From Carnegiea gigantea (taxonomy: Eukaryota; Streptophyta; Magnoliopsida; Caryophyllales; Cactaceae), in the NCBI GenBank assembly GCA_029747015.1, contig JAKOGI010001982.1:62001-126000 (forward strand): a DNA stretch of 64,000 bases, written 5' to 3'. The position numbers were made by a program, and so were the translations under genes. The notes below the pieces were generated by a model. That model ran no database searches. It had not been told where the DNA came from and saw only the letters and a program-made list of their open reading frames with translations. Of the stretch, positions 13,240-55,334 are shown piece by piece; within the stretch, counting starts at the first letter, position 1; every line of letters starts with the position of its first letter.

Positions 13240-13353
13240 TATGAATATCACTGCTAGATACCCTATTTTATAAAGAAATCATAATTAGGGGACCATGTTA
13301 TTAGAATATATTTAAAAGGGTTAATATTCTATGGAAACTATTTTAAGGGGACC
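13240..13353 (+). repeat. left terminal inverted repeat of P1
   Basis: Contains two related units, at 13257-13294 (GATACC to GGGGACC) and 13319-13353 (GGTTAAT to GGGGACC), about 62 bases apart. It pairs imperfectly with the reverse complement of 44460-44570, sharing TATTTTAT, GGGAC and TTAGAAT in the same order, with a few one- or two-base gaps. Confidence 0.7.
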
Positions 13354-13497
13354 ATTCACTATTTGCATTTTCATCTTAGCCCTTAAAGTTTTCATATTTG
13401 TATTTTAACCCCAATCCTTAAAAACTTACTTTTGAAAATTTTAATTTTGTACATATATAATTTTTCTTATAAGTACTACTTGAAGCCCTCTTTCAAT

Positions 13498-13515
13498 TGG
13501 TATCAGAGCCACATG
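13498..13515 (+). other. tRNA-Met primer binding site of P1
   Basis: TGGTATCAGAGCCACATG, 258 bases from the element end. In caulimovirids this site primes minus-strand DNA and marks the genome origin. The same site lies 263 bases (M1) and 257 bases (M2) from their ends, so the element ends fall at a fixed place in the viral genome. Confidence 0.85.
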
Positions 13516-13619
13516 ACCAAAAATAGTTAAGATAATTAAGCTAACTAATAACTAATTAAGCTAATTTTTTTGTGAGTAAGGTAATGCACATAACTAATTA
13601 AGCTAATTAACTATGATTA

Positions 13620-16095
13620 ATGCTTAAATCATGACCTACTTGCCCTGGTCCGAATTATTCATATATTGTTCACCCACCAGAAAGAATTTCTTCAGTAGCA
13701 CCTCAATTAAACTATATCACTAATATAGTTTTAAAATTAAAAGATGAATTAGCACAAATTAAGTTTGACGTCAACGAGCTTAAGAAGCAATTATTTGTAA
13801 TCCATCTTTCGTTAGTTAACGAAATTAGACATAGTGGAAAATCAACTTTAAATGTTAGTACTCCATTTCAACATAAATATCCTTTCCAAAACCCAAAAAC
13901 CAAAAATCCACTTCCTTTGCATGATATAAAAATCCAAAAGGAAGTAGGAGAAAAGCAAGAGAAAAATCAACTAAAAAGACAGAAAAAGAAAAAGTGGATA
14001 GAGTATAAGCAGTATAATCTTGAAGAGCTACATAGTATTTTTGAGAAAGAACAAAATACAAAAGAATTAAACAGAATCATGAATGCAATTATTGATAAAC
14101 AGGAAGTTTTATCTGATAATAATGAAGAGACAAATCATGTCCAGTGAGAAGAAGAAATATATCAGCAAATCAACTTAATCAAGCTGGAAGATCTTAATAT
14201 TGTACCTTTAGTAGAAATTAGAAGAAAATTGGTTTAAAAAAATACGGTAAAATGACTGTTGAAGATGAGATTAATAAAATTGGAGAAGAGCTCGACTTAG
14301 GTGAAATGGAGATCAATTTGGTTAATAATGTTGTTCCTAAACCTAAAGAATTTGCTGAACCTTCAAGAAGAAACACTGATTTCATGAGACGTGGATACAT
14401 TGCAGTGGGACATACAACTAATTTTTTTCTTTGGTTTTATCCCAAGAAAAACTACCAGTTATGAAAAAATTAGCCATACACCAATTTTCAAAACTAGATA
14501 TACCTTAAATATTGATAGAGCTCGTAATAGAGAAGAAATATTTGAGCATTGGAAAAGAAGCACCAATAGTGTCTTAAACTTAAATACTGCATGGACTGCT
14601 GCAAATTTCCTAAGCTACGTTGAACATAGCTTCGCTGGCACTGTAGCTGACTAGTATGATTCATTAAATGAAAACAGTAAAAATATATTAACAATGATGG
14701 AAACACCAGCTACAATGTTCAAAAATTTATGCAAGAAAATCAAAACTGAGTTTATCGGAGCCAAACTTGATTTTGAAGAAAAAGCAAAAGAGTGGCAAAG
14801 AAAGATTAATAACATAGAATTATGGGATATGAGATATCTGAAAAATTATATTATTGAATTTAGTCAATATTACTACAAAATTGGGCATAATTAAACCAAT
14901 TTTGGTATGTTCTATGACAAATTACTAAATCCGATAAATTTTGTAATTAATAAAAAATACATTGCATGGCTCGAAAGAGCAGATGTTATTAATACCATTG
15001 GTTCAAGAATTTCTCATTTAATAAAATCGGTCAATGATCAATGTTTTGATCTCAAAAGCAAAAGAAAATTAAGAAACAATTCCTAACTTGTTGGGATTTA
15101 CCTCACTAATGGAGAAATGAACCTGAAAGGAGAATAAAATGAAAATTTTATAAGAGCTTTAATAAGAAAAGGGGGAAGAAATGTAAAAGGAAATATTATA
15201 ATAAAGCAAGCATTAAAAAATGAAGATTTTTTTTGGACAGCAGCTTATTGTCCTCCAGCCAAAAACAAATACAAATGCTGGGCATGCAGGAAAGTAAGAA
15301 ATTATGCTAATGAACGCAAAAATAGGAAGAAGAACAAGCTTATTAAAACCTTAGGTAGCCTAGATTATGTTGAGCTTAGTGAGGATGAGACATTAGACCT
15401 AGCCCTAAATAACAACAAAGGGATAGTCCAAATCATAATGGACAATGAATATGGAGAACGTGATTATAAAGAAACTAGCTATAAGATAGAAAGTAGCTTA
15501 ATTAGTTTTGGTGATCTTCAAGGAGAAGAGTTTGTTGTAGATAGTGATAATGAAGAAGTCAAAGGAGATTAGGTCCTTCCCATAATCTAGAAAGATATGA
15601 TCTATAAAAAACCCATTTTTCAATTAAAGAGTTAGCATGTATGCGAGATGATGGAAGGAGATCTAGAAATCAGAGATTGCGAATATTATGTGGGAGAAGT
15701 TAATCTTATTAACTGGGAAAACATCCTGAAGTATAACAAAGACAGAAAGTATAGGTATATCCATGTTGGAAGTGTCCAAGTTCAATCATATTTACATCTA
15801 TATTCTGCTATGTGATATTAGGCATACCAAATTTAATAACCAAGTTATCATAGGGATTAAGACTAACTTATGTAATGGATCAGTAGGATTCAATTGTCGG
15901 TCTCGATATTATGTGAGCCTAAAAGATGAATTTGATAAAAACTTTCTATCCCTTAAGGTTGAAACAGTTAGAATGAACATGAAAAAATGAGGATCTCCAT
16001 TGAGGATATTTTGCAAAATTATCTACAAATTAGATAATATTATAGATCCAAAGATAATAGAGGCGGAAAAATTTGACAATAGTACCCTAATCTAA
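13620..16095 (+). pseudogene. P1 ORF1: coiled coil, capsid, zinc finger and movement protein
   Basis: A start equivalent to those of M1 and M2 is ATG at 13620, but TGA follows four codons later. Lys/Glu-rich coiled-coil sequence runs to about 14145. The capsid-like domain is 14250-15080, containing GTVAD near 14640 where the next codon, TGG in copy M1, is TAG. A CCHC finger at about 15268-15310 (CWAC) has lost its His and last Cys. An acidic stretch of Glu, Asp and Ser follows, then the movement protein at about 15640-16080 with RYIHVGSVQVQ and NLCNGSVGFN, typical caulimovirid movement-protein blocks. The region ends at TAA 16093-16095. Multiple stops and frame changes make it inactive. Names come from motif order, not from a search. 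Confidence 0.7.
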
Positions 16096-16423
16096 AAAAT
16101 CCAGAGGATTAAATCTAATCTACAGGAGATAAAGATTGATCGTTTATGGATATCTAGCTTTGCTAACCCTATAAAAATCAATAAGAAAAATGTGGTAAAA
16201 ACAAAAATTGATGAGAATTGTAAAATTATCATTAAACCCCAATTATTAAGGACTATAAGTGCAAGATCAGAACGGGAAGAAGGATCTTCTTCAGCTAAAG
16301 AAGAGCTTAAAGAAGATGATACAATTACTATGACTAGTAAAATGAGTAGAATGAGTTTTGAACCCACAAGACATAATGTAGATAGAAGTATGAGTCGAGA
16401 TAGGAAAGTCATTGGGTATACAA
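16096..16423 (+). pseudogene. P1 ORF2, 5' part up to the M1 insertion
   Basis: The reading frame continues after the TAA at 16093 in the same frame as the movement protein. It contains a Ser/Glu-rich linker (EEGSSSAKEELKE) that is also seen in M2 at 52380-52330. It is cut by M1 directly after TATACAA at 16417-16423 and resumes at 41459. Confidence 0.75.
16417..16423. repeat. left 7-bp target duplication of M1
   Basis: TATACAA, identical to 41452-41458 on the other side of M1. Both lie at the same codon position of P1 ORF2. Confidence 0.85.
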
Positions 16424-16537
16424 GCAATCAGTGACTTTTAGGTGCCTAACGTTTTTTGGTAAATATTTTTAGGCCCCTGTAATTTGAGATCTAATTCCGG
16501 GGCGCCTTATGTTTTTAGGTAACTAATTTTAGGTCCC
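16424..16537 (-). repeat. M1 terminal inverted repeat (3' end of viral strand) with two 37-bp iterons
   Basis: Units at 16441-16477 and 16501-16537 start GGTGCC and GGCGCC, end in GGCCCC and GGTCCC, and agree at 29 of 37 positions. The other M1 end (41350-41451, reverse complement) has the same plan: units starting GGTACC and GGTGCC, 60 bases apart. The whole repeat therefore pairs end to end at roughly two-thirds identity. Confidence 0.8.
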
Positions 16538-16539
16538 TT

Positions 16540-17371
16540 TTCCTATTATTTTAGTCCTTGAACTTTTAAAAAATTGCAGAAAGGTCCCTCGATTAGGTGA
16601 ACTATGCAAATAAGCATCTAAAAAGCAAATATGCTTCATTTTTATCGTTTTAACTTCTTATAAAGACTTTGCTGATACTAGTTATTACAATCTACTACTT
16701 ATATCATAAATATTATGTTTTCTGTGATTAACGATCCACCATGCTTAGCAAGATAATTAAAGCTTAATTAGAGCTTTTGACCATTGCCTCAACTTAGTCG
16801 GTGCTGGACTCCGGCATTCCTCTAGCTTTTTGTTTACAGAGAATGCTAATCTCAGCCCCACCATCCTTAGAATAGGCACATCACAGATCTGTTTCGTTTT
16901 CTACCTCAGACCGTAGTCACTAATCAAGTTTTAAGTATTTCAAAGGATAGTGAGACTTTAATGAAGAAATTATAATATTTAAGACATAAGGTTCGATTGA
17001 ATAACGTTCCCTACTAGGAAACTTCTTTTATTGAAAGCTTGAAAGTGGAAATATTAAAATGAAAAGCTTTAAAGAGGGACTTAAGTTAAGATTATTAGAG
17101 ATGCTTGCTCATAGAGAAATGGAGAATCCCGACTTCTCTTTTGCTCAAGAATGCTCAAATGATCGTGTCCCTTCTCAGCACTCGACTTCTCTATTTATAG
17201 AGTGGATGGAGGTACATATGATGCCCTAATGGCTATAGTACATAAAGATTTTTCACATTGCTATCATACATATTGACTCTACAATACACAGTTTATTTTA
17301 CAGACCAGACACTTGTCGAAATAGTACAATAATAGGGTAGCCACTTTTCAGAGCTATTAGTGATGACAAGG
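16540..17371 (-). promoter_or_regulatory. M1 long intergenic region: promoter and poly(A) signal
   Basis: On the minus strand a TATA box, TATAAAT (17199-17193), is followed by AATAAA (17032-17027) about 165 bases later, the short spacing caulimovirids use to make a terminally redundant RNA. The region is collinear with 45960-46800 of M2 and 43640-44470 of P1. M1 ORF3 ends at its stop, 17374-17372, just upstream on the viral strand. Confidence 0.7.
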
Positions 17372-17423
17372 TTAGTCATCATTATTGAGATTCTGCATTC
17401 CTTCATCTCTAATTATATCTTCC

Positions 17424-18725
17424 TAATGGAGTCCTCCATAGCTAAGATAATGAAGAGGATCCTAAGAGTCCTACAAGGTCTAATGCAAGTTCCAAAATCC
17501 AAGCAATGGTTCAAATATTGAAGGAGAACCAAACAGAAACATCAGGGTTAAACAACCAGAACGTACCTGGTTTTATTCATCTCATTTCTTAAGCTACATT
17601 GTGCCTTAAGATTGATATTTTTGCATTTTTGGATTCCTCATTATGTTAGCTTTCAGGTCCAAGCATTTAAAATCAATCATGAATAGTTGAAGTCAAAAGA
17701 TCAAGGCCTTTTATTCAACTTATCAGTTTTGGTTCAAAACTGCATGGTAAAATGTTTTAGTGGAAATCTTTTACTTAAATATGATTTAACCCTGATTTCT
17801 TTGCAGGGGGGTTTGTACAAACCCTAAAGAGTCCCCCCATGGCCTAAAATGAAAATCATGCTCACTTTTGATTGGTGGAAGCAAGGTCACAGAACCGTGC
17901 TAAAACTACCTTGTGAACCCAATTGAAGTACTATGTGTTTTTTCTTCTCCAAAGGGTTTCCTCAGCTCTATCCTTGCTTGGTTTCTTCAATCCCTAGTCA
18001 AGCAGTTAGGAAACACTATGATTTGCTGCTAAAGAAGCCTTGAATCATGTGAACCAATGAGAGCAAAAAGGAAGTAAAGGCACCTTGTAATCTGATTGGA
18101 TAGCCAAAAAGAGAACCACCTTTACAGCTATGTTTCTCCACATTTTGCTAGTAAAGATGTTGAATTAGCTTAATTACAATGTATTAAATTTAATCACATC
18201 ATTTGTTTTGCTTTTCTTAGAAATCTGGTTGTAATTAGTTTAGTTTACGCAAGCATGTAATCTAATTTTGTTCAAAGCGCATGTAATTAGCTAATAATCC
18301 ATTTCCTTCCTAGGTAGGAAACCTCCACCAACTTGCTTGGTTTAGGTGCTTGCTAGGTCATGTACTAATGTTTACTCACGGCGATTTTGTAAACACGCTT
18401 GAACTTTGAATGAAAACCAGAATAAAGAGCATTTAGCTTTCATCCTTTCAAATACTTCACTTGCTTATCCTTAATTTGGTCGATTAAGGTGGCGATCAAG
18501 TAAGTTCTAAACCTTGATTAAGTGGTGATTCTATATCTTAATATCAGTTTAGGGGCCCTAATCTTATGTTTAGTGGTGTTTTTGTATCTAAACAAGAGCT
18601 TAGATTATCCTTCTTTGATTCATTCATTCACAGCAACACTTAAACTTCAGCTTGAATTCAGTTTGCTTTCTTTTAGCTTTTGAATTCAATTTTACATTTT
18701 AGTGTTTTCCTATCAAGATACATCA
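17424..18725 (+). repeat. 5' LTR of the Ty3 element
   Basis: Begins TAATGGAGTCC (the 3' copy begins TGATGAAGTCC) and ends in ACATCA. Same length as the 3' LTR. Confidence 0.95.
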
Positions 18726-18729
18726 TATT

Positions 18730-18741
18730 TGGTATCTGAGC
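18730..18741 (+). other. Ty3 primer binding site
   Basis: TGGTATCTGAGC, one base different from the tRNA-Met complement TGGTATCAGAGC. Confidence 0.8.
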
Positions 18742-18838
18742 ATAGGTTTGTCCTTGGCCTGGTACGTCCCTCCACTTCTAGAATTCATTTTTACTCAAAA
18801 CCCCTAACACATTCCTAGCTTGAATCTAAACACAAACC

Positions 18839-20052
18839 ATGAGCATGATGAGTTCTAGCACAAGTTTGGAAGAGAAGTTTGAAGCATTAATAAGGCAGAA
18901 TGAAATGCTGGCAAAGAAGATTCATGAGGATACTGAGCGCAACTAAGAAACTTAAGGTGAGAGTGAGTATCTACGGAAGCAACTTGGTACGGTTTTGAAG
19001 CAAAAGTAGAAAATAAATGAAGAAACCCTACAATCTGAACCAAGAAGGCAAGAAGAAGTCTTCAGCCATGAAGTTGATTCATCTAGTGAAGATGAACTAG
19101 TCAGAATGGCAAGAGCAGAATCACGGATGCAAGCTAACGCCAATGATTTCAAAATTGAAATTCCAAAATTCGAAGGTAAGCTTGATCCAGATGAATTTCT
19201 AGATTGGTTGCATACTATTGAACGTGTCTTTGAGTATAAAGACGTTGAAGAGGATAAGAAAGTCAAGCTAGTGGCCTTAAGACATAGAAAGTATGCTTCA
19301 TTATGGTGGACCAACCTATGTGCTAAATAGGTTAGGGAAACAAAGTCTAAAATCAGAACTTGGGACAAGATGAAATCAAAGCTTAAGGCTCATTTTCTTC
19401 CCCCAACTTATGTTCAGGATTACTATTTTTAATTCCATAATCTTACTCAAGGCAACCTGAGTGTTGAAGAGTACACACAGAAGTTTAAGAAACTTGTAAT
19501 CAAGTGTGATTTACAAGAACCCGAAGAGCAAACCATTGTTAGGTACTTAAAAGGACTTGATCCTAGGTAAGCTAATGTGGTTGATTTGCAAGCATATACT
19601 ACCTCTGATGAAGTGTGTGTGCTGGCTCATAAGGTTGAGTAGCAAAAGCAAGCAAGGTAGCCTCTTAAACGCCAAAATCCAAAGCCTCATACCCAGAACC
19701 AACCCTTTAAGAAGGGGAGTTCTAATCCCATTTCCAAGCCACAAAATGCATCCCCTTCCTTTCCACAAAAAACCCCAGCTCCACAAAAGATCCAAACTCC
19801 TCAAAATAGGCCTAATCCCAATCCTATGAGCAATAGAAGATGTTTCAAATGCCAAGGACTTGGGCATATAGCCTCGGACTACCCAAACCATAAGGTTATT
19901 ACTTTGTCCGAATGGTCAGCCGTGAAGGAAGTCTTTGAGGAGGAAGAAAATGAAGATGAATGTGAGAATGAACTTAAGGAAACTCAAGAAGAAGTAGTGG
20001 AAGAAGCTGATGAAGGTGAATTACTAGTTTTGAGAAGAGTTCTAAGCAACTA
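18839..20052 (+). pseudogene. gag: Ty3 gag (capsid and zinc knuckle)
   Basis: The ATG at 18839 opens a coiled-coil-like N-terminus with a stop near 18944. The capsid retrotransposon-gag domain begins at 19106 with PKFEGKLDPDEFLDWLHTIERVFEY and ALRHRKYASLWW, which is diagnostic. The frame is lost at 19330 (TAG) and reappears in pieces to 19630. The zinc knuckle CFKCQGLGHIASDY at 19838 has Tyr for the last Cys. A Glu-rich tail with EEEENEDECENE follows to 20052. At least four inactivating changes. Confidence 0.85.
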
Positions 20053-20079
20053 GAAAGGTGTAAAAGAAGAGCAAAGGGA

Positions 20080-20660
20080 GAACATATTCCATTCTCGTTG
20101 TACAGTCCAAGGGAAGGTATGTTCTTTGATTATTGATGGAGGAAGCTGTGCAAATGTGGTTTCTCTAAGCATGATTGAGAAACTAGGAGTGCAAACTCTG
20201 ACTCATCCACCTCTATACAACATTCAATGGCTGAATCAATGCAAGGGAATCCAAGTGAACTCACGGTGCTTGATTTCTTTTTCCATTGGAAAGAACTATC
20301 AAGGTGAACTTTGGTGTGATGTTATCCCTATGGATGCTTGTCATATGCTTTTGGGGAGACCATGGCTGTATGACCATAAGGTTATGAATAATGGCTACTT
20401 GAATACCTACTCCTTTACTAAGGATGGTAAGAAGATCACCTTAGCCCCTTTACCCCCATCAAAACTCCATGAAATCAAGCCTCAAAACAAGCCCAAACAT
20501 GTTGATTTGCTACTGTCCATAAGTGAACCTTTATTAAAGGCTTCTCAACATGCGTTTAAGGTCTTTAAAGAATGGATTTTGTATGCAAGAAGAACCAGTA
20601 ACCCCTTTACCCACTTACCCCATAGCCTAAACACTCATATAAAACTTCTGTCGTTTGTTT
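20080..20660 (+). pseudogene. pro: Ty3 aspartic protease
   Basis: IIDGGSCANVVS at 20126 is the plant Ty3 protease active-site block, Asp-Gly-Gly in place of the more common Asp-Ser-Gly. LLGRPWLYDHKV follows at 20350, the second conserved block. The frame is open from 20126 to 20665 and then shifts into the RT frame at 20655. Confidence 0.8.
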
Positions 20661-21970
20661 CCTGAGGAGATACCCATGGGTTTACCCCTAAAAGAGATGT
20701 CCAACACCACATATCTTATTCCTGGTTCCATCCTACCCAACATGCCTGCCAACAGGATGAATCCAAAGGACACCATCGAAATACAAAGACAAGTTGAAGA
20801 GTTGAAGTCTAAGGGCTTAATCCATGAGTCCTTAAGTCCATGTGCTGCGCCTATTCTTTTGGTGCCAAAGAAGGAAGGTGGAATGCGTATGTGTGTGGAT
20901 AGTAGGGCCATTAACAAGATCACAATCAAGTATAGGTATCTCATACCTAGACATGAAGACATGCTAGATGAACCACATAGCTCTAAAGTGTTTTCAAAGT
21001 AAGACCTTCGAAGTAGATACTACCAAATTCGAACTAGAGAAGGTGATGAATGGAAGACATCTTTCAAGACTAAGGAAGGGCTTTATGAATGGTTGGTTAG
21101 GCCCTTGAGTCTTTCAAATGCACCTAGCACATTCATGAGATTGATGAATCAAGTATTCAGGCCATACGTAGGCAAGTTTATGGTGGTTTACTTCGATGAT
21201 ATCTTGATTTATTCCAAGGATGAACATGAACATCAAGACCATTAACTCAAGTGATGCTTCTTCTAGAACATGAAAGACTATTTGGTAACTTAAGAAATGT
21301 GCTTTCTTCACTCCATAAGTAACATTCTTAGGTCACATAGTCACCAATGATGGCATTAAGGCAGATGAAAGCAAGATTGAAGCTATTTGGTCAAGGCCTA
21401 CTCCTAAGTCCATTCATGATGTTTGAGCTTTTCATGGATTTGCTTCATTTTACAGGAGGTTTATTAGACATTTTAGCACCATTTGGCTCCTATAACTGAA
21501 GTTATCAAGGGTAAATCATTCCATTGGACACCAAAAGCTCAATCTGTCTTTGAAGAGATCAGAAGAAGACTTACTAAAGCACCTGTTCTTTCCTTGCCGT
21601 GCTTTAGTAAAGTATTTGAAGTTGAACGTGATGCCTCTGGAGTTGGCATAGGTGGTGTTCTTACTTAAGAAGGTAAGCCGTTAGCTTTCTTTAGTAAGAA
21701 ATAGTGTTATTCAAGAAGAAAATATTCCACCTATGATAAAGAGTTCTATGCAATTGTAAGATGTTTAGAGCATTGGAGTCATTATTTGATTGCAAGTGAG
21801 TTTATCCTCCATTCTGACCAGCTTTGAAGTATATTCAAGGCCAACACAAATTAAACTCACGTCAGGCTAAGTGGGTTGACTTTCTTCAATAATTTCATTT
21901 CACAATCAAGCACAAATCTGGAAAGCTTAACCAAGGTGCCGATGCTCTATCACGGAGGTATCTACTTTTG
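20655..21970 (+). pseudogene. pol: Ty3 reverse transcriptase and RNase H
   Basis: RT fingers and palm: GLIHESLSPCAAPILLVPKK, then RMCVDSRAINKIT at 20885 and the catalytic [10 protein letters not shown] at 21189, keeping both Asp. RNase H begins near 21500 with VERDASGVGIGGVL at 21622. Stops at 21001, 21243 and 21667 and several frame changes prevent synthesis of a full protein. Confidence 0.85.
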
Positions 21971-22039
21971 TTTCAATTAGATGCTTGTGTACTTGGTTTT
22001 GAGCATCTAAAAGCTTTGTATACTGAAGATGAAGATTTA

Positions 22040-23188
22040 GGGAGTTGTTTGCTGATTGCTTAAAGCACCCCAAAGGAGATTTTCTTATTCAAAAAGGATT
22101 CTTATTCAAGGGTACACAGCTGTGTGTGCCATGGTATAGCACAAGAGAGCTTCTAATCAAGGAAGTGCATGGAGGTTCTTTAGTTGATCACTATGGGGAA
22201 AACAAGACACTCATCATGCTAAGAGAGCATTACCACTGGCTAAGTATGGAAAGGACGTACAAAACGTTTTGAAGAGATGTGGGACTTGTCAAGTGGCCAA
22301 AAGTCACTCCCTACCCCACGGCCTATACACACCATTACCTATTCCTACTTCTCCTTGGGTTGATGTAAGTATGGATTTCATTCTTGGACTACCTAAGACC
22401 AAAGGAACAAAGATTCAATCTTTGTTGTAGTAGATAGGTTCTCTAAAATGTCTCATTTTATTCCATATAACAAGACTAATGATGCTACACACATTGCTGA
22501 GTTGTATTTCAGGGAGGTGCCTAGATTACATAGTATACCTAGATCAATTGTTTCTGATTAGGATACTAAGTTTCTAAGCCATTTTTGGATTACCTTGTAC
22601 AAGAAGTTAGGTACTAAACTGAAATGCAGTACCACTTGTCATCCACAAACTGATAGGCAAACTGAGGTTATAAACTAAACCCTAGGAGCAATTCTAAGGG
22701 CTTTGATTAAACCTCATGCCAAAGCTTGGGATTTGCTTTTACCCCATGTAGAGTTTTCTTACAACAGGGCTCCAAGTAAGGCTATTATTCTATCACCATT
22801 TAAGGTGGTCTATGGGATTGATTCTACTAGTCCACCTGATCTTACTCCAAGGCCATTAGATCAAAAGCCAAGTACGAATGCAGTAGTTAAGGTGGAAGAA
22901 ATCCAGAAGATACATGAGTTAGTAAAGAGAAGAATAGAGAAGACTAATGCATCATACCAAGCTCAAGCTAACAAACATAAGAAGAAGATGGTACTTCAAC
23001 CTGGAGACCTTGTGTGGATACACTTAAGGAAAGAGAGATTTCCATCAAAGAGGAAGAACAAGCTCATGCCAAGGGCTGATGGTCCATTTAAGGTACCTAA
23101 AAAAATTAATGACACTACTTATAAGGTTGATCTGCTAGGGGACTATGGAGTTTCAGCTACATTCAACGTGGCTAACTTGAGTGCTTAC
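22040..23188 (+). pseudogene. pol: Ty3 integrase
   Basis: The zinc-binding N-domain is split: GGSLVDHYGENKT and EHYHWLSM at 22165-22250, then RCGTCQVAKSH in another frame at 22275. The catalytic core follows with [11 protein letters not shown] near 22375. The C-terminal segment 22703-23191 is open, with SYNRAPSK and the GDLVWIHLRKERFP block. It ends TFNVANLSAY at 23188. No chromodomain is visible before the polypurine tract. Confidence 0.85.
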
Positions 23189-23244
23189 TAAGCCGATGAT
23201 TTCCTTCAAGATTTGAGGATCAAATCTCTTTAACAAGGGGAGGA

Positions 23245-24546: not shown

Positions 24547-24551
24547 CTTCC

Positions 24552-25588: not shown

Positions 25589-25589
25589 T

Positions 25590-26150: not shown

Positions 26151-26199
26151 CCTATCTTTAATATTTTAGGAAAATTTTCTATTTTTTCTAGAATGTACC

Positions 26200-27000: not shown

Positions 27001-27007
27001 TTTCTTG

Positions 27008-27866: not shown

Positions 27867-27913
27867 TTACATGGGGCAGGACTTTCAAATTTCTCTACTT
27901 CTATCATTGTTAC

Positions 27914-41451: not shown

Positions 41452-41458
41452 TATACAA
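41452..41458. repeat. right 7-bp target duplication of M1
   Basis: TATACAA, identical to 16417-16423. Confidence 0.85.
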
Positions 41459-42823: not shown

Positions 42824-42879
42824 AAGTTCTTATGTTCAAGAAAAATGGTTCAATAAGTAGTGTGCAATCTACATCGACT

Positions 42880-44460: not shown

Positions 44461-44570
44461 CTGTGCTAATAGTTTACCCAAAATAGTAGGTACGTGGGAA
44501 TACATTCTAAAAAAGTAGTCCCTTTAAAACTATTTCCATAAAATCCAGGATACCTCATAGTTGCAAATTG
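44460..44570 (+). repeat. right terminal inverted repeat of P1
   Basis: The reverse complement begins CAATTTGCAACTATGAGGTA and is close to the left end of M2 (45820, ACAATTTGCAACTTTTGGGT). It pairs imperfectly with 13240-13353. Confidence 0.7.
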
Positions 44571-44577
44571 TTTCAAA
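44571..44577. repeat. right target duplication of P1 (7 bp)
   Basis: TTTCAAA against TTCCAAA at 13233-13239. Confidence 0.6.
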
Positions 44578-45819: not shown

Positions 45820-45895
45820 ACAATTTGCAACTTTTGGGTACCATGGACTCTATGAAAATAAATTTTAGGGGATAACTCTTTTAGAATGTATTCCG
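45820..45895 (-). repeat. M2 terminal inverted repeat (3' end of viral strand)
   Basis: Plus-strand start ACAATTTGCAACTTTTGGGT. Pairs with 55260-55334 reverse complement (start GGGAAATATCACTGCTGGAT) without gaps, at about two-thirds identity. Confidence 0.8.
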
Positions 45896-45959
45896 AAGTA
45901 CCTACTATTTTGTGTAAACTATTAACAGGGTCGATATTTTCTGAAACAGTTGCTTTTCA

Positions 45960-46798
45960 AAGTTTTTCTTTGCAACTTAGTCCCTAAACTTTCTGAATTT
46001 TCTATTTTTGGCCCACGTTCAAAGTGCAAATACTCAAGTTTTTGGGATGTTTTAATCAAACTAAGCTTATATTTTTGTTTGGACTTCTTATAATGACTTT
46101 ACTAGTGCTACTTATCACATCTACTACTTGTACCATAAATATTATATTTTCTGTGATTAATGGTCCACCATGCTTAGCAAAATAATTAAAACTTAATTAG
46201 AGAGCTTTAACCATTACCTAAACTTAGTCGGCGCTGGACTCCGTCATTCTTCCAGCTTCCAGTTTACAGAGATTGCTAATCTCAACCCCACCTTCCTTAG
46301 ATTAGGCATAGCACATATTTGTTTTGCTTCCTACCTCAAACTGTAGTCACTAATCAAGTTTTACATATTTTTAAAGGATAGTGAGACTTAATCAAGAAAT
46401 TATAGTATTTAAGATATAAGGTTCAATTGAATAACATTCTCCACTAGAAAATTTCTTTTACTGAAAGTTTTAAAGTGGAAATATTACAATGGAAAGCTTG
46501 AAGAGGAACTTAAGTTAAGATTATTAGAGATACTTGCTCATAAAGTAATGGAGAATCCTAACTTTCCTTTTGCTCAAGAATGCTCAACTGATCGTGTCCC
46601 TTCTTAGCACTCAACCTTCCCTTTTATAGAGGGATCGGGATACATAGGATGCCCTATTGGCTATAGTACACACTGATTTTATATAGCTACAGTTATGTTC
46701 ACATGGGTACAGCACACTGCTTTATTTTACAGGCCTAACACTTGTCAAAATAGTACAGTAATGGAGCAACCACTTTTCAGAGCCTTTTAATGATGACA
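45960..46798 (-). promoter_or_regulatory. M2 long intergenic region with TATA box
   Basis: Minus-strand CTCTATAAAAGGG with TATAAAA at 46628-46622, followed by the conserved leader words AGAAGGGACACGA and GAGCATTCTTGAGCAAAAG that are also present in P1 at 43780-43830. No AATAAA at the place where P1 and M1 have it. Confidence 0.7.
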
Positions 46799-46801
46799 AG
46801 A

Positions 46802-47880
46802 CTAGTCATCATTATTGAGATTCTGCATGCCTTCATCTCTAATTATATCTTTCAAATGAGCATTATCTAGATAATTATCAAAATCTTCGACAAACTGAAG
46901 ATACTTTGGGTCCCATTTCTCAAATAAATCAAGAAGATATTTCTTTCCTTTATCTAATAAGAATTTTCCAACTCTAGCATCAAAGAGATAATCAAATATA
47001 TCTTCTAAAACCCCTGCTTCCACCTTCATATATTCTTTAAACTCTTTGTCATACGCGAAAGTAGTGTTTCTGAAATGCATTAACGTTATTCCTCATTCAA
47101 TTAATGCCCAACTTTGATGATAAATATTGTAAAAACTGATGGCACTTGCTAAAGCAGGATCAGCAATTAATTTTAGTCAATCTGAAAACCATTCTTATCG
47201 TTGATCATAGGGATCATTGTAATCAACAATATGAACAAGATAATGGGCTGGCTTGGCTTTTCTATTTTCATACTCGATTAGTGCACACCTCCACATATAG
47301 GCATCAATTAGTTAGAATTTTTGTTGGACCATCAGGATATGTTAGAATCTAATGGATCCTTCTAAACATGCATTGTTGGAACTTGGTAATTTTGAGAAAA
47401 ATGGGTGCTTTGGATCTGGAAATTCCATTAAGTAAACTTCCATACCGTACTCCCAAGCTTTAATGATGGGGTCATTTAGAGAGATTGAATTTGCTGGGAA
47501 ACTAACACCACCAAGTCCAGACTTATCTGAAAGTAGATCGTTATACTCCAAGACTCCCAAATATCAAAGGAATAATTATGATAATAGTCAATGCAAGCTG
47601 CATACCATTTATTGAACCACTTTTCTTGAACATGAGAACTTATTTTTTCTTGAATATCATAGGGACGTTTTAGGTAATTAACTTGTAACTCTAGAAGGAA
47701 AAATATTTAGATTATTAGGTAGCAGACCAAAACAGGATCTATTTCTTGCATGGAATTCTAAATTGTCAATAAGGACTTTATTAGCAGGAGAAATCCGTTC
47801 TAGTAGTAAGGGCATTTCATTACAGAATTCCTCCTTTTCTAGCAGGAGTTCTGCTCTGATGATCACCCTTGGCGAGTTCT
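46802..47880 (-). pseudogene. M2 ORF3, transactivator-position protein of unknown function
   Basis: About 355 residues if joined by eye across breaks. The start overlaps the end of RNase H in another frame, and the ATG of M1 reads AGG here. Segments: 47866-47678 (LLLEKEEFCNEMPLLLERI), 47560-47342 (SGLGGVSFPANSISLNDP), 47080-46802 (NTTFAYDKEFKEYMKVE, ending NLNNDD then a stop). Conserved among the three copies, hence a real viral gene, but with no motif I can assign. Confidence 0.55.
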
Positions 47881-49238
47881 CGAGTTAAACTTCCTACCAA
47901 AGAGTTCTTTATGTTTAATAGAGAAGGAAAACTGGTTAAGCCATAAATGTCAACGCATAAGTCGCCCTTGCACTTGCATATTTGATAAATTCTTTTTCAT
48001 AAAACCAAGTACTCCTTTGCAATCGGCTGGAATAAGAAAAAGTTTTGGGGCTAAAGGAATAAAGAACTTCTCAATTCCCCTTATGACTACAAGGATTTCT
48101 TTTTCCATCATGGCATAGTTGCGTTCTGTCTTATTAAAAGTTCCACTATAATATTTGCAACGTTTTTCACCTTCTTTAATTCTGAGTACTACGCTTCAGT
48201 ACTCATTGCTGGCATTTGTCTCAAGAACTAAATCATCTCTTTCATTGGCAAATTAAGAACAGGAAGATTTTTGCACATCTTTTTCAAGTCTTGAACAATC
48301 TTCGAATCACTAGGGGCCCATGTCCAACTCATTTCTTTCTTGAGTTTCTGTAATATATTTCTTTGTTTAGCTAAATCCTTAATGAAATTTGAAGCATAGG
48401 TAAGACATCTAAGAAAACTTTCTAGTTACTTCCTATCTTCAATCTTTTTAGAGAAATTCTCTATTTTTTCTAGAATATGCTTTTGTAGGATGATTTATCC
48501 AGCTTTTATCTCCAGGCCTGAGAAATCAATTTTTTGTCCAATATAAATGGACTTGTTCTTATCAAGTATTATAGCATGATCAATACAGCTTTGGGTGACA
48601 GCTAAGACATCATTTTTATGCTGTTCTATGATTTTGGAAAAGACAAGAATATCATCAATGTAAACTAAACAATAGTGATTAAGATCTTTAAAGATGTTTT
48701 CCATTCTTTTTTGGAATATTTGAGGTGCATTTTTAAGATCAAATAGCATTACTATCGATACATAATGTCCTTGTGGGGCATTAAATGCAGTTAAAGGAAT
48801 ACTTTTCTCATCCATTTTTATCTGCCAATAACCGTTTTTCCAATCCACTTTTAAAAACCAAGAGGCACCTTGAATTTTGTTGAAAAGGATTGTTTTGTTA
48901 GGAATGTAATAACCATCAAAGACAATATTATCATTAAGCTTTTTGTAATTAATTACCATTCTTACTTTTCTTCTCTTTTCTTCAGCATGATTTCTTACCA
49001 TGAAAGCGGGGCTGTGTGAGGACTCTTGCTATTCCCAATTAATCCTTTATCCAGAAATTTTTTGATTTGTTTATCAAATTCCTAGATATTCTGGCATGTA
49101 TACACCATTTGTTTGACTTGAATAATTGTATTGGGATTTAACAGGGTAATTTTTGCAAATGCCTTATCTTTATTGCAAAATTTCAGTGGATTATCAGGTA
49201 GAGTTCTTTACATAAATTTTCTTGTTGTTTGACAATCT
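47881..49238 (-). pseudogene. M2 reverse transcriptase and RNase H
   Basis: The longest RT piece, 49001-48495, has INYKKLNDNIVFDGYYIPNK, DWKNGYWQIKMDE and the catalytic loop YIDDILVFS with both Asp intact. RNase H near 48215 reads LETNASN, the same Asn for Asp as in M1, and reaches about 47800 with SLTREL. A TGA and frame shifts lie in the RNase H part. The 5' end is cut by the Tat-type insertion at 49239. Confidence 0.8.
49128..49238. repeat. 111-bp duplication flanking the Tat insertion, left copy
   Basis: Aligns without gaps with 51538-51648, with about 11 differences. Both are the same part of viral ORF2 just before the RT domain. Confidence 0.85.
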
Positions 49239-49871
49239 TTGATGCCCGACCAATAAAATGAATCATCCTCAACACAACTATCATCACCCCTAAGAGACTC
49301 ACCCATCTCTAACCCCATGCACTGAGCTAAAGGGAGGGGAGAAGAAAGTAAGTACAAGACACCCTCAATAGTGTCTCTAGGTGTGTTAGACAAGGATGGA
49401 GCAACCAATGGTGAAGATGTCAAGGGAGGATCAATCACTTCCTCTAGGTCGGTCAAAGGCAAATCAATCATAAAAGTAAGCTCTAGAGGAAGAGAAGACT
49501 TATAATCATTATAGAGCCTAACCTTAAGTTTAGGAGAACATGGAACTAGGGTCGGTCTCACACAATAGGCCACACTCCCTTGTCTTACCAACAAAACATC
49601 CATGTCACTCATTCATTGTCTCTATTACGACATTAAGTCTAGCATAGCATGCATTAGAAATATCATAATAAGGACAAGAATTCGCATCATGGTCCAAAGA
49701 TTGACGATAAGAGCACACAAGAGGAGAATAGGTGTGCAAATCATAAAAAGTGGGGGAAGGGCACACAAAAGACTCAATAGAAATCTCATGGTGCCATTGG
49801 TACCAAGCCAAAGATTCAAACAAACCCCATATATCATCAACATCTAAAGAGTACAAACCACTATAACACAT
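49239..49871 (-). pseudogene. leader ORF fragment of the Tat-type element
   Basis: Two overlapping frames: 49871-49605 (ANSCPYYDISNACYARLN, ending IETMNE) and 49612-49208 (DVLLVRQGSVAYCVRP, then LPLTDLEEVIDPPLTSSP). Both look protein-like and sit just after the primer site, where Tat/Ogre-type elements often have an extra ORF before gag. The second frame reads past the junction into viral sequence at 49238. I do not know its function. Confidence 0.4.
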
Positions 49872-51012
49872 GGACTAAAAGAGTGGCTCGGGTCTAATGT
49901 GTTATCCCCTAAAGTACAACATTGCATATTTTCCATTTTTTATACGTGAAATGCACATATTGAGCACAGTAATCATTTAATCGAGACAAATATTGCCAAA
50001 AAGGTTCATGCTCAAATTGAAGTAAATGAAAAAATAGCCATTTTGATTTTTTATTTTTTAAATTTTTGATTTGTTAAATTTTTTTTGAATTTTCTAAAGG
50101 CCTAGCCTCGAAAATTCAAGGAAATCCCGATATTGAAAAGCGCCAACTGCCCGGCAACGGCGTCAAAAACTTGATGGAAGAATTTGAGTTTTAATATTTA
50201 TAACCCCAAGTGCAAGGTTGTACCATTGAGTACTTGGTGTGTCGTCCATTGAGAGTTAGGTTTCAAGTGCCAGGATTAGCTAAAGTGACTCAATCTAGGC
50301 CAAGAAGAAAGAAAATGAAAACAAAGCTAAACTAAACTAATAAAAGCAAAAGCGGTGGCTTGAGACTATGATTTGATCAATTGACGAACTAAATAGTCGA
50401 GATGAGTCCTAACCTACCCGACTCATACCCATAATTAGGGATGGTCAGTTGCGGCATCAAAGATCACCAAATCCCTCTCTCAAGGGTCATGAGCTAGCCT
50501 AATTGGTATAACCACCTATTTTCATAGGATTAGCCAAATTAGGCCACAAAAACCCTTAAACCTAGCTAGGATCGGGACTATTCTTCTATCCCAAACCTGG
50601 CTGTTCTCTCCCCCGTACTAGCTAATCAATCTCACCTCTCGGCATAGGTCAATCACCCAAAAATATAGATGAAAGATCTATTAAGCATTTTATTAAACAC
50701 TTGGTGAGCATGAGAAAAAACTCTAAGTTCTAAGCATAAATTAGGTCTGGTCAGGCCTAATACAAGTCTAAGTAGCCATCAAGAGGCTAATCCCAATCCA
50801 AGCCAACCAAACTAATCACTAATCAACCACAAAACATGAAAACCTAAACTTGCAAATATGAAAGCAAAACATGAACTAGAAAGGAAGAGAATGAAATAAA
50901 TCTAATCTAATTAATCTAATTAAACATGAATTAACAATGAAAACTAAACATTTAAACTAAATAAGTCAAATATAAGAATTAAACTAGCAAAACCTAAGCA
51001 AAAATAAGATAT

Positions 51013-51047
<35 letters not shown>

Positions 51048-51534
51048 AAAACTTATGCTTGATTGATGAAATCTACTTGAAATCCACAAGCTTGAATCCA
51101 AAATACAATCTAAAAATCCTAATCTAATCCTCCTATTGAGGTTTTTATTTGCCAAACTAACCTAAAACCTAGCTGAAAAATCGCTAGAAAAAACCACCAA
51201 AAAAAATCCCGAGCCAAGCCTTTTATAAGAGACAACCCGGGCCACGCATGACAGGCCCGGGCTGGCTAGCCGATGACCAGCCCCTGGCTGCTGCTGGCCT
51301 TGGTCAGCGGCTGGCTAGGGGCGATGGCCGTTCTGCAGTCAACCGGCCCCCGTTGCCCGTTGTCTTGTTTTCTTCCTTTTTGATCATCTTTTGCTCCTTT
51401 CACGAGATTTACTCCGTTGAACATATTACCTACAAAAGTAAATTAAACAAGTAAAAATCCTAGAGATTATATTATTGTGCGAGCTAAACTTAAGTGAAAG
51501 AAGCATGTAAAATACGATAAATTAGCACCTAACA
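49239..51534 (-). mobile_element. Tat/Athila-type LTR, primer site and leader inserted in M2
   Basis: Read on the minus strand: LTR 51534-50172 starting TGTTAGGTGC and ending CCATCA, primer site TGACGCCGTTGCCGGGCA at 50165-50148 (tRNA-Asp type, two mismatches), then a leader with short ORFs to 49239. Gag, pol and the 3' LTR are missing, so it is a 5' fragment of about 2.3 kb. The LTR contains a GA microsatellite at about 51018-51042. It lies inside M2 ORF2 and is flanked by a divergent 111-bp duplication instead of a 5-bp one. Confidence 0.8.
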
Positions 51535-52551
51535 ATAGTATTGGAATTTAATAAAGTAATTTTTGCAAATGTCTTATCTTTATAGCAAAATTTTAGTGGA
51601 TTATCAAGTAGAGTTCTTTGCATAATTTCTCTTGTTGTTTGACAATCTGCTCTTTAATAGATAACTCAAGTAATGAGATTGTCAGTGCAATCTCGCATTG
51701 TGCAGACATTACCTTCTCACCATGCTGGCTGCTTATAAATTCAATTTTTTGATGAGTGTAAGCTTTGCTTAATTTTTCAATAGGAACTGAGTGATCATTG
51801 ATTGTAAATATTATTTGATTTATGGTCTGTGTGCATGGAGAATATAGTTTCTGAAAATCATTTTCAATAATCATATCATGAGAGGGTTGATTAGTAGCAT
51901 ATGAAACTGATATAATGCATTGAACTCCTCCTAATTCTGTGGATAACCCTTCTATAGCTTCATTATGACTCATAATGCTATTAAAGGCTATCTTCACTTG
52001 TAAAAGATTTGTAGCTCTTTTCTCCATAAAGTCTGGAAATAATGATCTTTTTTTAAAGTATAGAGAACAACCACTATCTATGTAGGCACACAACTCATAT
52101 TTATTATATTCCTCTAAGCATATATTTATTGGGATATAGATGCTATTAAGATTTGTGTTGGTGACTTCATAGCTTATCTCCATAGTCATATTTTTGACTA
52201 ATTCATCCTCATAAATTGGCTCACTAATAGTTCTTGTTTTGTATCCAACGACTTTCCTATCTAGACTCATACTTCTGTCTACACTGTGTCTTGTGGGTTC
52301 AAAAGACATTCTACTCATTTCACTGGTCATGCTAATTGTATCTTTAAGCTCTTCTTTAGCTGAAGAAGATCCTTCTCCCCATTCTGATGTCGTACTCATA
52401 CTTCTTAATAATTGGGGTTTGATGGTAATTTTACCATTCTCATCCATTTTTATCACATTTTTCTTATTGATTTTTACAGGGTTGGCAAAGCTAGATATCC
52501 ATGACTGATCAAATTTATCTCCTGTGGATTGGATTTAATCCTGTGGATCTT
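51535..52551 (-). pseudogene. M2 ORF2 N-terminus with aspartic protease
   Basis: The open frame 52456-51593 (287 residues) starts with Lys/Ser-rich linker sequence (SEWGEGSSSAKEELKD), passes MSRMSFEPTRHSVDRSMS and NSIYIPINICLEEYNKYEL, and reaches the protease block AYIDSGCSLYF near 52080 with intact Asp-Ser-Gly. It shows without interruption the codon at which M1 inserted into P1. It ends at the Tat-type insertion. Confidence 0.8.
51538..51648. repeat. 111-bp duplication flanking the Tat insertion, right copy
   Basis: Partner of 49128-49238, about 10 percent different. Confidence 0.85.
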
Positions 52552-54997
52552 TTATATAGGGGTAGGACTTTCAAATTTTGCTACCGCCATCATTGTGACC
52601 TTAGTCTTTGGATCTATAGTATTATCTAGTTTGTAGATAATTTTCCAAAATATCCTTAATAGATATCCTCCTCTTTTAATATTTATCCCAACTGTTTTTA
52701 TCTTAAGGGATAAGAAGTTTTTGGCAAATTCGTCTTTTAAGCTCACTTAATATCCAGGTCAGCAATTGAATCCTACTGATCCATTACATAATTAGTCTTA
52801 ATCCCTGTGATAATTTAATTATTGAATTTGGTATGCCTAATATCATAGAGCAAAGCACAAAGATCAATATATTTGCCATAATATTATAATGGAGTGATTT
52901 GAACTTGGGCACTTCCAACATGGATATACCTATACTTTCTATGTTTGTTATGCTTAAGGATGTTTTTTCAATTAATGAGATTAACTTCTCCCATATCATA
53001 CTTACAGTCTTTTATCTCTAAATCTCCTTCCATCATCCTGTATACATACTTACTCTTTAATTGAAAGATGAATTTTTTATAGATCATATCTTTCTTAATG
53101 ATGGAAAGGACCCAATCTCCTTTGACTTCTTCGTGATCATCGTCTGTAACAAACTCTTCTCCGTGAAGATCACCATGACTAATCGAGCTACTTTCCATCA
53201 TATGGCTTTTCTTTTCATAATCACTTTCTTCATATTCATCGTCCAAGATAATTTCAACAATTCCTTTGTTGTTATTAGGGCTAGGTCTACTGCCTCATCT
53301 TCCCTAAGCTCAATATAATCTAGGCTATCCAAGGTTTCAATAAGCTTGTTATTCTTTCTATTTTTACATTCATTAGCATAATGTCCTACTTCTCCACATA
53401 CCCAGCATTTGCAGTTGTTTTTCCCTACAGGACAATAAACTACTTTCCTAAAAACTCTATGTTCTTTAGGACTTGGTTTGTTATAATATTCTCTTCTATG
53501 ATTTCTATTCCCTTTGCTTATTAAAACTCTTTTCTTATAAAATTTTCTTTTTCTTCTCCTTTTAGGTTCTTTTCTCCATTGGTGAGGTGAATCCCAATAA
53601 GTTAAAAATTGTTTCGTAATTTTCTTTTGCTTTTAGAGATCAAGACCTTGATCATGACCCATTTTCTTAAATAAGAGATTTTTGAACCAAGGGTGTCAAT
53701 GGCATCTGCTTGCTCAAGCCATGCAATGTATTTTTCATTAATTATGGAATTTATTGGGTATGGCAATTTGTCATAGAACATACCAAGATTGGTTTCATTA
53801 TGCTCAATTTTGTAATAATATTGACTAAATTCAGAAATATAATTTTTCAGATATCTCATATCTAATAATTCTATATTATTAATCTTTCTCTGTCATTCTG
53901 TTGCAAAATCAAGTTTAGCTTCGATAAACTTAGTTTTGATTTCTTTGCATAAATTTTTGAATATTGTAGCTGGTGTTTCCATCATTCTTTATATACTTTT
54001 ACCATCTTCATTTAATGAATCATACTAGTCAACTACAGTGCCAGAAAAATTATGTTCGATGTAATCCAGGAAATTTGCAGCAATCCATGTAGTGTTTGGG
54101 TTTAAGACACGATTCATGCCTCTTTTCTAATATTCAAATATTTCTTCTCTATTACAAGCTACATCTATGTTTAAGATGTATTCCATTTGACTAATTGGAG
54201 TAAGGCCAACTTCTTCAAAGGCTATAGTTTTCCTTGAGATGAATCGAAAGGAAAAATTGGTTGTACCTCCTACTGAAATGTACCTGAGTCTTATAAAATG
54301 AGTATTTCTTCTAGAAGGTTCACCAAATTCTTTAGGTTTAAGAACAACATTGTTAACCAAATTAGCCTCTATCTCATTGAAGTCGAGTTCTTCTCCAATT
54401 TTATTAATCTCATCTTTAACAGCCATTTTACCATATTTTTTGTCCAATTGTCTTTTAATTTCTTCTAAAGGTAACACAGGATCCTCTATTTTAATAAGGT
54501 TCATCTGCTGATATATTTCTTCTTCTAATTAGACATTATTAGTCTCTTCATTATCAACAAATAATACGTCATATTTAGCACTAATTGTGCCTATGATTTT
54601 GTTTAACTCTTCTAGATTTTGTTCTTACTCGAACATATTCTGTAGTTCTTTAAAGTATACTGCTTATACTCCATCATCTTCTTCTTTTTCTGCTTTTTCA
54701 ACCGATTTTTCAGCTGATTTTTTCCTACTCCTTTTTGGATTTTTATATCATGCAAAGGGAAAAAAAAATTTAGGGTTTTGGAAATGATATTTATGCTGAA
54801 ATGGCGTACTAATATTAGAAGTAGATTTTCCACTATGCCTAACTTCGTTAACTAGAGAAAGGTGAATTACAGATAATTACTTCTTAAGGTCCTTGATTTC
54901 AATCTTAATGTTAGTATATTTTTATATCATAGCCTTATGGTCAGTGAACAATGTGAGAATAATTCGGTCCCGGGCAAGCAAGTGCTGATTCAAGCAT
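52552..54997 (-). pseudogene. M2 ORF1: coiled coil, capsid, zinc finger, movement protein
   Basis: ATG at 54997. Coiled coil near 54830-54610 (KKQKKKKMMEYKQYTLK), a linker at 54504-54127 (MNLIKIEDPVLPLEEIKRQL), and the capsid at 54120-53602 with frame breaks. A CCHC finger (CWVC) lies near 53400, an acidic stretch at 53350-53150, and the movement protein at 53140-52552, including LKSKYVYRMMEGDLEIKD. TGA at 52761-52759 is at the same codon as in M1, and TAA nearby adds a second break. The terminal TAA at 52554-52552 is shared with P1. Confidence 0.75.
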
Positions 54998-55059
54998 TAA
55001 TCACTATTAATTAGCTTAGTTAATTATTAATTGGCTTAATTATCTTAATTATTTTTGAT

Positions 55060-55077
55060 CACGTGGCTCTGATACCA
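55060..55077 (-). other. tRNA-Met primer binding site of M2
   Basis: TGGTATCAGAGCCACGTG read from 55077 to 55060, 257 bases from the element end. Confidence 0.85.
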
Positions 55078-55259
55078 GTTGAAAGAGGGTCTTGAATAGT
55101 ACTTATAAGAAAATTTACACATGCATAAATTTTAGATTTCAAAGGTAAAATTTTAAGGATTTGGGCTAAAATGCAAATATGAAAATTTTAAGGGCTAAAA
55201 TGAAAATAAAAACAGTGAACGGTTCCCTTAAAATGGTTTCCACATAATATTGACCATTT

Positions 55260-55334
55260 TAAATATATTCTAATAACATGGTCCCCTAATTATAATTTTC
55301 ACACAAAATAAGGTATCCAGCAGTGATATTTCCC
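55260..55334 (-). repeat. M2 terminal inverted repeat (5' end of viral strand)
   Basis: Minus-strand start GGGAAATATCACTGCTGGAT, nearly identical to P1 left end TATCACTGCTAGATACC (13246-13262). Confidence 0.8.

What the first reader, a model, noticed from the sequence alone, without database searches (positions are those of the whole stretch)
13240..55334. Three pararetrovirus copies carry terminal inverted repeats and 7-bp target duplications
Copies P1 (13240-44570), M1 (16424-41451) and M2 (45820-55334) each span one viral genome unit, end in imperfect inverted repeats that reach the exact ends, and are flanked by 7-bp repeats: TTCCAAA/TTTCAAA, TATACAA/TATACAA and AAAAGAA/AAAAGAA. Caulimovirids encode no integrase, and endogenous copies are usually explained by end joining, with variable breakpoints and no duplication. 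A fixed breakpoint plus a fixed duplication length suggests an enzyme: either a DNA transposase acting in trans on the viral inverted repeat, or an unknown integration route. 7 bp fits neither typical hAT (8) nor typical MULE (9).
Basis: partly seen in the sequence, partly recalled or inferred. Interest (0 to 1): 0.92.

Follow-up and report, generated by a model that had tools for sequence, protein, structure and literature searches.

The report
Plant virus inserted like jumping gene
An ancient plant virus with no recognised integration enzyme lies in this genome in many copies, and those examined mostly begin and end at the same two viral points between matching 9-letter host repeats, as if a host jumping-gene enzyme had pasted them in.

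Summary
The finding holds, with a correction that changes its meaning. P1, M1 and M2 are real caulimovirid copies whose ends lie in a long imperfect inverted repeat. The target duplication is 9 bp, not 7. I examined 47 further genome copies from two subfamilies; 32 gave both ends. With the 3 window copies, 28 of 35 show a duplication matching at 7 or more of 9 bases; mismatched end pairs of the first set do so in 2.8% of 756 cases. In that set (28 copies) matching is 64-86% at positions 1-9 and 11-25% next to them. Five M1-type copies, tested with boundaries fixed beforehand, score 8-9 of 9. Fixed ends plus a 9-bp duplication resemble Mutator-like (MULE) transposition, and MULE transposase domains are abundant here. 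The inverted repeat sits where caulimovirids carry their RNA leader hairpin; the breakpoint is its centre. M1 differs from M2 and P1 in both end segments, which are neighbours only in a circle. Old shared transversions fall mainly at third codon positions, suggesting a replicating source under selection. Best reading: circular viral DNA was integrated by a transposase supplied in trans, most likely a host MULE. The enzyme and the circle are inferred.

The parts
13242..44570 (+). P1, caulimovirid unit, interrupted by M1 (16425-41450)
   Evidence: homology to M2, protease and RT domains
13233..13241 (+). P1 left 9-bp duplication TTCCAAATA
44571..44579 (+). P1 right 9-bp duplication TTTCAAATA
16425..41450 (-). 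M1, caulimovirid unit inserted in P1, itself interrupted by two LTR retrotransposons
16416..16424 (+). M1 9-bp duplication GTATACAAG (viral 3' side)
   Evidence: single, slightly different copy in the homologous M2 sequence
41451..41459 (+). M1 9-bp duplication GTATACAAC (viral 5' side)
45821..55333 (-). M2, caulimovirid unit with a 2.3-kb extra segment
45812..45820 (+). M2 9-bp duplication TAAAAGAAA
55334..55342 (+). M2 9-bp duplication CAAAAGAAC
55193..55333 (-). M2 inverted-repeat arm, viral 5' end
45821..45961 (-). M2 inverted-repeat arm, viral 3' end
41310..41450 (-). M1 inverted-repeat arm, viral 5' end (different sequence type)
16425..16565 (-). M1 inverted-repeat arm, viral 3' end (different sequence type)
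13242..13382 (+). P1 inverted-repeat arm, viral 5' end
44430..44570 (+). P1 inverted-repeat arm, viral 3' end
13498..13509 (+). tRNA-Met primer-binding-site match in P1 (motif recalled), 256 nt inside the 5' end
55066..55077 (-). primer-binding-site match in M2, 256 nt inside the 5' end
41177..41188 (-). primer-binding-site match in M1, one mismatch, 262 nt inside the 5' end
51596..52534 (-). M2 frame with caulimovirid protease (Peptidase_A3, E 1.5e-16)
48498..49028 (-). M2 reverse transcriptase piece (RVT_1, E 4.2e-25)
25679..26080 (-). M1 RNase H piece
38824..39192 (-). M1 viral movement protein piece (MP, E 1.6e-05)
53201..53632 (-). M2 zinc-knuckle piece (zf-CCHC; taken as coat-protein region)

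Best explanation
These are copies of an ancient caulimovirid that entered the chromosome by transposition-type integration. Shown: nearly fixed breakpoints at both viral ends, a 9-bp target duplication in most copies with both ends, ends lying in an inverted repeat, and the same pattern in two subfamilies. Supported by small counts: the source was under protein selection before integration. Inferred: in circular viral DNA the two ends are adjacent, so the inverted repeat (taken to be the pregenomic-RNA leader hairpin) looks like two abutted transposon ends. A transposase supplied in trans, most likely one of the host's MULE transposases, cuts at the centre of the repeat and joins the linear unit to a target cut with a 9-bp stagger; gap filling makes the duplication.
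For: 28 of 35 copies with both ends match at 7 or more of 9: first set 23 of 28, two later copies 0 of 2, M1-type set 5 of 5 at 8-9 of 9 with no shift allowed. Nulls: 2.8% of 756 mismatched pairs; 0 of 20 for the M1-type set; 0 of 200000 permutations reach the first-set count. In the first set positions 1-9 match at 0.64-0.86, positions 0 and 10 at 0.11 and 0.25. Flanks differ between copies. MULE transposase domain: the 150 listed genome matches are all over the family cut-off, 2496 first-look candidates. The repeat lies between a promoter-like motif (P1 only) and the primer-binding site, as the leader hairpin does in PMC5902531 (passages). Both end segments of M1 differ from M2 and P1 together, and 5 of 5 further M1-type copies with both ends have M1-type 5' ends. 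Transversions shared by at least 4 copies fall at codon positions 1/2/3 as 5/0/16 in two coding pieces (RT 1/0/8, 5' piece 4/0/8), against 6/4/0 in a non-coding control.
Against: The outermost 10 nt of the two ends agree at 3 of 10 by commonest base, unlike classical MULE ends. No MULE with the same ends was found, though only 8 loci reaching 1.5 kb beyond the transposase domain were compared. No transposase domain reaches its cut-off in the pieces searched. 7 of 35 copies show no acceptable duplication, and 15 of 47 copies gave no usable 5' end. No head-to-tail viral junction was found: the 3 pattern matches are not viral joints. The selection signal is weaker in shared transitions (RT 49/33/57, 5' piece 31/22/34) and absent in RT transversions shared by 2-3 copies (14/14/16).
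Confidence: 0.62

Rival explanations
1. Domesticated transposon: a viral genome was captured once between MULE-type ends (Pack-MULE-like) and the chromosomal element then spread by cut-and-paste transposition, without further viral replication.
For: Same ends and 9-bp duplication; many first-look candidates (3410 and 1953); MULE transposases present; roughly even divergence of copies (6-15% from the commonest base) suggests a burst.
Against: Old shared transversions are mainly at third codon positions. The M1 end segments changed as one block, which needs two events in a linear element but one in a circle. The primer-binding site lies about 256 nt inside the end; it is intact in 12 of 28 copies (about 9.5 expected under neutral decay, so this says little) and in 5 of 5 M1-type copies. 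Elements with these ends and non-viral interiors were not sought.
Confidence: 0.2
2. Unknown viral or virus-associated integrase: a viral protein not recognised by Pfam performs the joining.
For: Two subfamilies integrate alike; a frame of about 92-96 aa downstream of RNase H has 80 relatives, none with a Pfam domain. PMC10741241 (passages) names petunia vein clearing virus as an exception with an integrase domain.
Against: No integrase domain in the pieces searched (one sub-threshold match of the zinc-knuckle piece to an IS91 transposase zinc-binding model, 16.6 bits against a cut-off of 26.3). Most LTR retrotransposons make 4-6 bp duplications (PMC12440569 abstract), not 9.
Confidence: 0.1
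3. Integrase of an LTR retrotransposon acting in trans on viral DNA.
For: Two LTR retrotransposons are nested in M1 and a related copia-type element lies at 59632-63986.
Against: The two nested LTR elements are flanked by 5-bp repeats (my reading of the sequence printed), the viral units by 9 bp; the viral ends are inverted, not direct, repeats.
Confidence: 0.03
4. Passive capture of viral DNA as filler during repair of chromosome breaks, with chance duplications.
For: It is the usual explanation for endogenous caulimovirids (PMC10377300 passages; PMC13308828 passages); 7 of 35 copies lack a duplication.
Against: Nearly fixed ends and 9-bp duplication in 28 of 35 copies. 0 of 28 copies have a (TA)4 run within 30 bp of the joints, but the published (TA)n association is measured within 1 kb, so this is a weak test.
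Confidence: 0.03

Closest known systems
Endogenous caulimovirids (endogenous pararetroviruses)
   Same: Protease, reverse transcriptase, RNase H, movement protein and zinc-knuckle domains; tRNA-Met primer-binding-site match; unit of about 7.1-7.2 kb; no LTRs
   Different: Explained in the papers seen by break repair, with rearranged or truncated copies; here the ends are nearly fixed and a 9-bp duplication is made
Mutator-like elements (MULEs)
   Same: 9-bp target duplication and long imperfect inverted repeats near the ends
   Different: The interior is a pararetrovirus, no transposase gene was found in it, and the outermost bases of the two ends differ
Teratorn (piggyBac-herpesvirus fusion; seen only as search listings with the start of the abstract)
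   Same: A virus joined to DNA-transposon-type mobility
   Different: Described as a composite with a piggyBac-like transposon; here the ends appear to be the virus's own leader repeat and no transposase gene was found inside
Rice RTBV-like endogenous sequences (PMC526188, passages)
   Same: More than half of the junctions lie in the intergenic region
   Different: A preferred zone, not a fixed nucleotide, with AT-repeat flanks; no duplication mentioned in the passages seen

Membership tests
Caulimoviridae (endogenous) | Caulimovirid protease, RT, RNase H and movement protein domains | tested here: met
   Peptidase_A3, RVT_1, MP, RNase H
Caulimoviridae (endogenous) | tRNA-Met primer-binding site | tested here: met
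   exact in P1 and M2, one mismatch in M1; exact in 12 of 28 and 5 of 5 M1-type copies
Caulimoviridae (endogenous) | Lacks LTRs and integrase | tested here: met
   no direct terminal repeat of the units in the self-comparison; no integrase domain in the viral pieces searched
Mutator superfamily | Target duplication of about 9 bp | tested here: met
   28 of 35 copies; 7-12 bp given in PMC10741241 (passages)
Mutator superfamily | Long terminal inverted repeats with matching outermost bases | tested here: inconclusive
   A repeat of 88-104 nt is significant but the first 10 nt agree at only 3 of 10
Mutator superfamily | Encodes a MULE transposase, or shares ends with an element that does | tested here: inconclusive
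   None recognised in the pieces searched; transposases abundant in the genome; ends not matched in the 8 loci compared
hAT superfamily | 8-bp target duplication | tested here: not met
   position 9 matches about as often as 1-8 in the first set (0.68) and in 5 of 5 M1-type copies; the length scan, with 1 nt of freedom, does not separate 8 from 9
LTR retroelements / retroviruses | LTRs and 4-6 bp duplication made by an integrase | tested here: not met

The most novel reading that the evidence does not exclude
A plant pararetrovirus lineage uses its own RNA leader hairpin as a pair of abutted transposon ends, so that a host MULE transposase integrates its circular DNA precisely; the virus thus gained a proviral stage without coding for an integrase, and did so with at least two different hairpin sequences.
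Probability: 0.45. Interest if true: 0.95.

Novelty: new variant of a known kind. Interest (0 to 1): 0.86.

Why it matters
How caulimovirids, which are held to lack an integrase, fill plant genomes is an open question usually answered by passive DNA repair. Nearly fixed ends and a 9-bp duplication in two subfamilies point to an enzymatic route and name a candidate enzyme class that can be tested with a simple reporter flanked by the two repeat arms. It would also link an RNA-structural element of a virus to DNA transposition.

Tried and rejected
Rejected: (1) 7-bp duplication: genome copies show 9. (2) hAT, 8 bp: position 9 matches about as often as positions 1-8. (3) Ends at the DNA gap expected at the primer-binding site: the ends lie about 256 nt away. 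(4) Spread as a decayed element with inherited stop codons: the RT piece has 14 stop positions shared by 2 or more copies; I looked at 11 of them, and the commonest codon is CAA, CAG or TGG, as recurrent C-to-T or G-to-A decay would give. The one widely shared frameshift (25 and 6 copies at neighbouring positions) is most simply a single-base loss in M2; another is shared by 2 copies. (5) Head-to-tail copies that would show the circle junction: 3 pattern matches in the genome, none a viral junction. (6) Viral-contig scans with RT and protease pieces and an RT alignment gave no relatives. (7) Fine covariation of the arms: in 28 copies own arms pair hardly better than arms of other copies (means -54.7 and -53.3); M1 and L031 rank first with their own arm. 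Five further M1-type copies have own-arm energies of -56.6 to -65.5 over 140 nt, weaker than M1's -82.8 over 150 nt. (8) Linkage of end subtypes was too weak to use. (9) A first duplication count (17 of 28) had wrong boundaries for M2 and M1 and was replaced.

Not settled: which enzyme, host species, virus genus, and whether elements with the same ends and non-viral interiors exist.

Full report
What is in the window. Self-comparison of the window shows three units of one family. P1 (plus strand) is split by M1 (minus strand); M1 is split by two LTR retrotransposons; M2 (minus strand) lies beside P1. Pfam finds caulimovirid protease, reverse transcriptase, movement protein and zinc knuckle and RNase H in their pieces. 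From the coordinates M1 and M2 without inserts are about 7.1-7.2 kb; P1 is about 0.8 kb shorter. The two named RT relatives are from plants (Fragaria, Shorea); most of the 120 listed carry no name.

The ends. The two ends of each copy are inverted repeats: the best local alignment of the arms beats 500 of 500 dinucleotide-preserving shuffles in each copy, but begins 10 nt (M2), 16 nt (P1) or 36 nt (M1) inside the end. Arms paired as separate strands: of 200 shuffles, those at least as stable number 1, 6 and 0 (M2, P1, M1) for nt 0-60, 1, 11 and 0 for nt 60-130, and 21, 12 and 13 for nt 130-258. The primer-binding-site match lies 256 nt (P1, M2) or 262 nt (M1) inside the 5' end. A TATA-like motif lies about 319 nt inside the 3' end of P1; the motifs tried were not found in M2 or M1. 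This places the repeat where many caulimovirids carry the pregenomic-RNA leader stem-loop, with the primer site downstream (PMC5902531, passages; badnaviruses differ). The assignment is inference from position and pairing.

Genome-wide test. The genome search answered for the own genome (G000, 1.13 Gb, 5575 contigs). For the M2 3' end 40 of 3410 candidates were scored, giving 40 long matches and 7 short reverse ones; 35 of the 40 reach query base 1-3 (own copy included). The query starts at the element end, so this shows that homology reaches the end; that it stops there is shown by the unrelated flanks. I fetched separate pieces for 37 of the 39 other copies (C4393 and C4998 were left out because I feared short contigs; their lengths were not checked): the 3' end and a stretch about 5.6-8.7 kb inward. 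25 of 37 had the 5' end there; 11 had none and one was truncated. Of seven pursued further two gave a 5' end; in two others, looked at nearer the 3' end, the viral match breaks off. For the M1 3' end 40 of 1953 candidates were scored and 39 of 40 reach query base 1-3, own copy included; of 10 copies fetched, 5 had the 5' end within range.

Target duplication. In a common orientation the element runs from CAATTTG to GATATTTCC or a close variant. With these boundaries and 1 nt of freedom, 23 of the first 28 copies (25 genome, 3 window) match at 7 or more of 9 positions; 19 of 28 with no freedom. Mismatched left/right pairs with the same freedom reach 7 in 2.8% of 756. Position-wise agreement is 0.64-0.86 for positions 1-9, 0.11 at position 0 and 0.25 at position 10. 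No permutation of 200000 reached the count; the largest was 9. The 9-bp register and boundaries were chosen after looking at this set. The M1-type set was fetched afterwards and tested with boundaries fixed beforehand: 5 of 5 score 8 or 9 of 9, and 0 of 20 mismatched pairs reach 7. The two later copies of the first type scored 6 and 3 of 9. In total 28 of 35, and 7 of 35 without.

Control in the same nest. The two LTR retrotransposons inside M1 show 5-bp flanking repeats, CTTCC and GTTAC, by my reading of the sequence printed, so old duplications remain readable here and differ in length from those of the viral units.

Where the copies came from. The RT piece was compared in 36 of 40 copies (four genome copies had no RT in the stretch). 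34 of 36 carry an in-frame stop in M2's frame; M2's piece is open because it was chosen as an open frame. Copies lie 6-15% from the per-column commonest base. RT transversions seen in one copy fall evenly over codon positions (71/68/79), those shared by 2-3 copies too (14/14/16), and those shared by 4 or more fall 1/0/8. In a 5' coding piece (29 copies) the values are 59/52/45, 9/7/20 and 4/0/8; in a non-coding control (29 copies) 32/38/35, 11/14/13 and 6/4/0. Shared transitions lean the same way only weakly (RT 49/33/57, 5' piece 31/22/34 for 4 or more). An RNase H piece was found in only 6 copies and is uninformative. The numbers are small but favour a source under protein selection with copies decaying neutrally.

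A circular form. M1 and M2 are 51-65% identical in the first 280 nt from the 3' end and 70-89% further in; at the 5' end they are 51-56% identical over the first 140 nt and 69-86% further in. M2 and P1 show no such drop. The two low stretches are at opposite ends of the integrated unit but adjacent in a circle. 5 of 5 M1-type copies with both ends carry the M1 type at the 5' end too. One exchange of the leader in a circular or RNA stage explains this simply. M1's own arms pair at -82.8 kcal/mol, against -47.8 and -41.7 for its 3' arm with the 5' arms of M2 and P1.

Mechanism. A fixed 9-bp duplication with long inverted repeats is typical of MULEs (9 bp for maize MuDR, Jittery and TED in PMC9569675, passages; TIRs that can exceed 300 bp and 7-12 bp duplications in PMC10741241, passages). 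The genome holds many MULE transposase domains: 150 matches listed, all over the cut-off, four in open frames of over 700 codons. I infer that a transposase in trans cuts at the centre of the viral inverted repeat in circular DNA. Against: the outermost 10 nt of the two ends agree at 3 of 10, and I found no MULE with these ends, having compared only 8 loci with 1.5 kb on each side of the domain.

Prior work. I looked for reports of target duplications, terminal inverted repeats or MULEs in endogenous caulimovirids with the paper searches (open-licence PMC only). I saw the listings, and passages (one abstract) of nine papers; most listed papers were not opened. I saw no such report. The 2023 review PMC10377300 (passages) favours break repair with (TA)n association and mentions in one sentence a suggested hijack of a transposon-derived integrase. 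PMC526188 (passages) reports junctions concentrated in the intergenic region. Subscription literature was not searchable.

Limits. Counts from the genome search are of scored candidates, so copy number is unknown. Copies were chosen by similarity to the M2 or M1 3' end, which favours an intact 3' end; the 5' end and the duplication were not selected for. The host species and virus genus were not determined.

Noticed in passing
49239-51530: 2.3-kb segment in M2, absent from P1 and M1, flanked by a 118-bp direct repeat (89% identical) of viral sequence; no Pfam domain in the five open frames tested of eight listed.
   Followed up: partly
17424-24546 and 27914-38656: Two LTR retrotransposons nested in M1, with LTRs of about 1.3-1.4 kb and 5-bp flanking repeats CTTCC and GTTAC; the second carries a copia-type gag and an integrase core, and a Transposase_32-like piece at 35944-36549 that stays below its cut-off.
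   Followed up: partly
46805-47092 (minus): Frame of about 92-96 aa downstream of RNase H, with 80 relatives and no Pfam domain in any of them; also found in P1.
   Followed up: partly
59632-63986: A second copia-type element, about 90% identical to part of the one nested in M1.
   Followed up: no
16441-16538: The M1 3' arm holds an internal direct repeat 60 bp apart (38 bp, 82% identical), so the inverted repeat may be built of tandem units.
   Followed up: no
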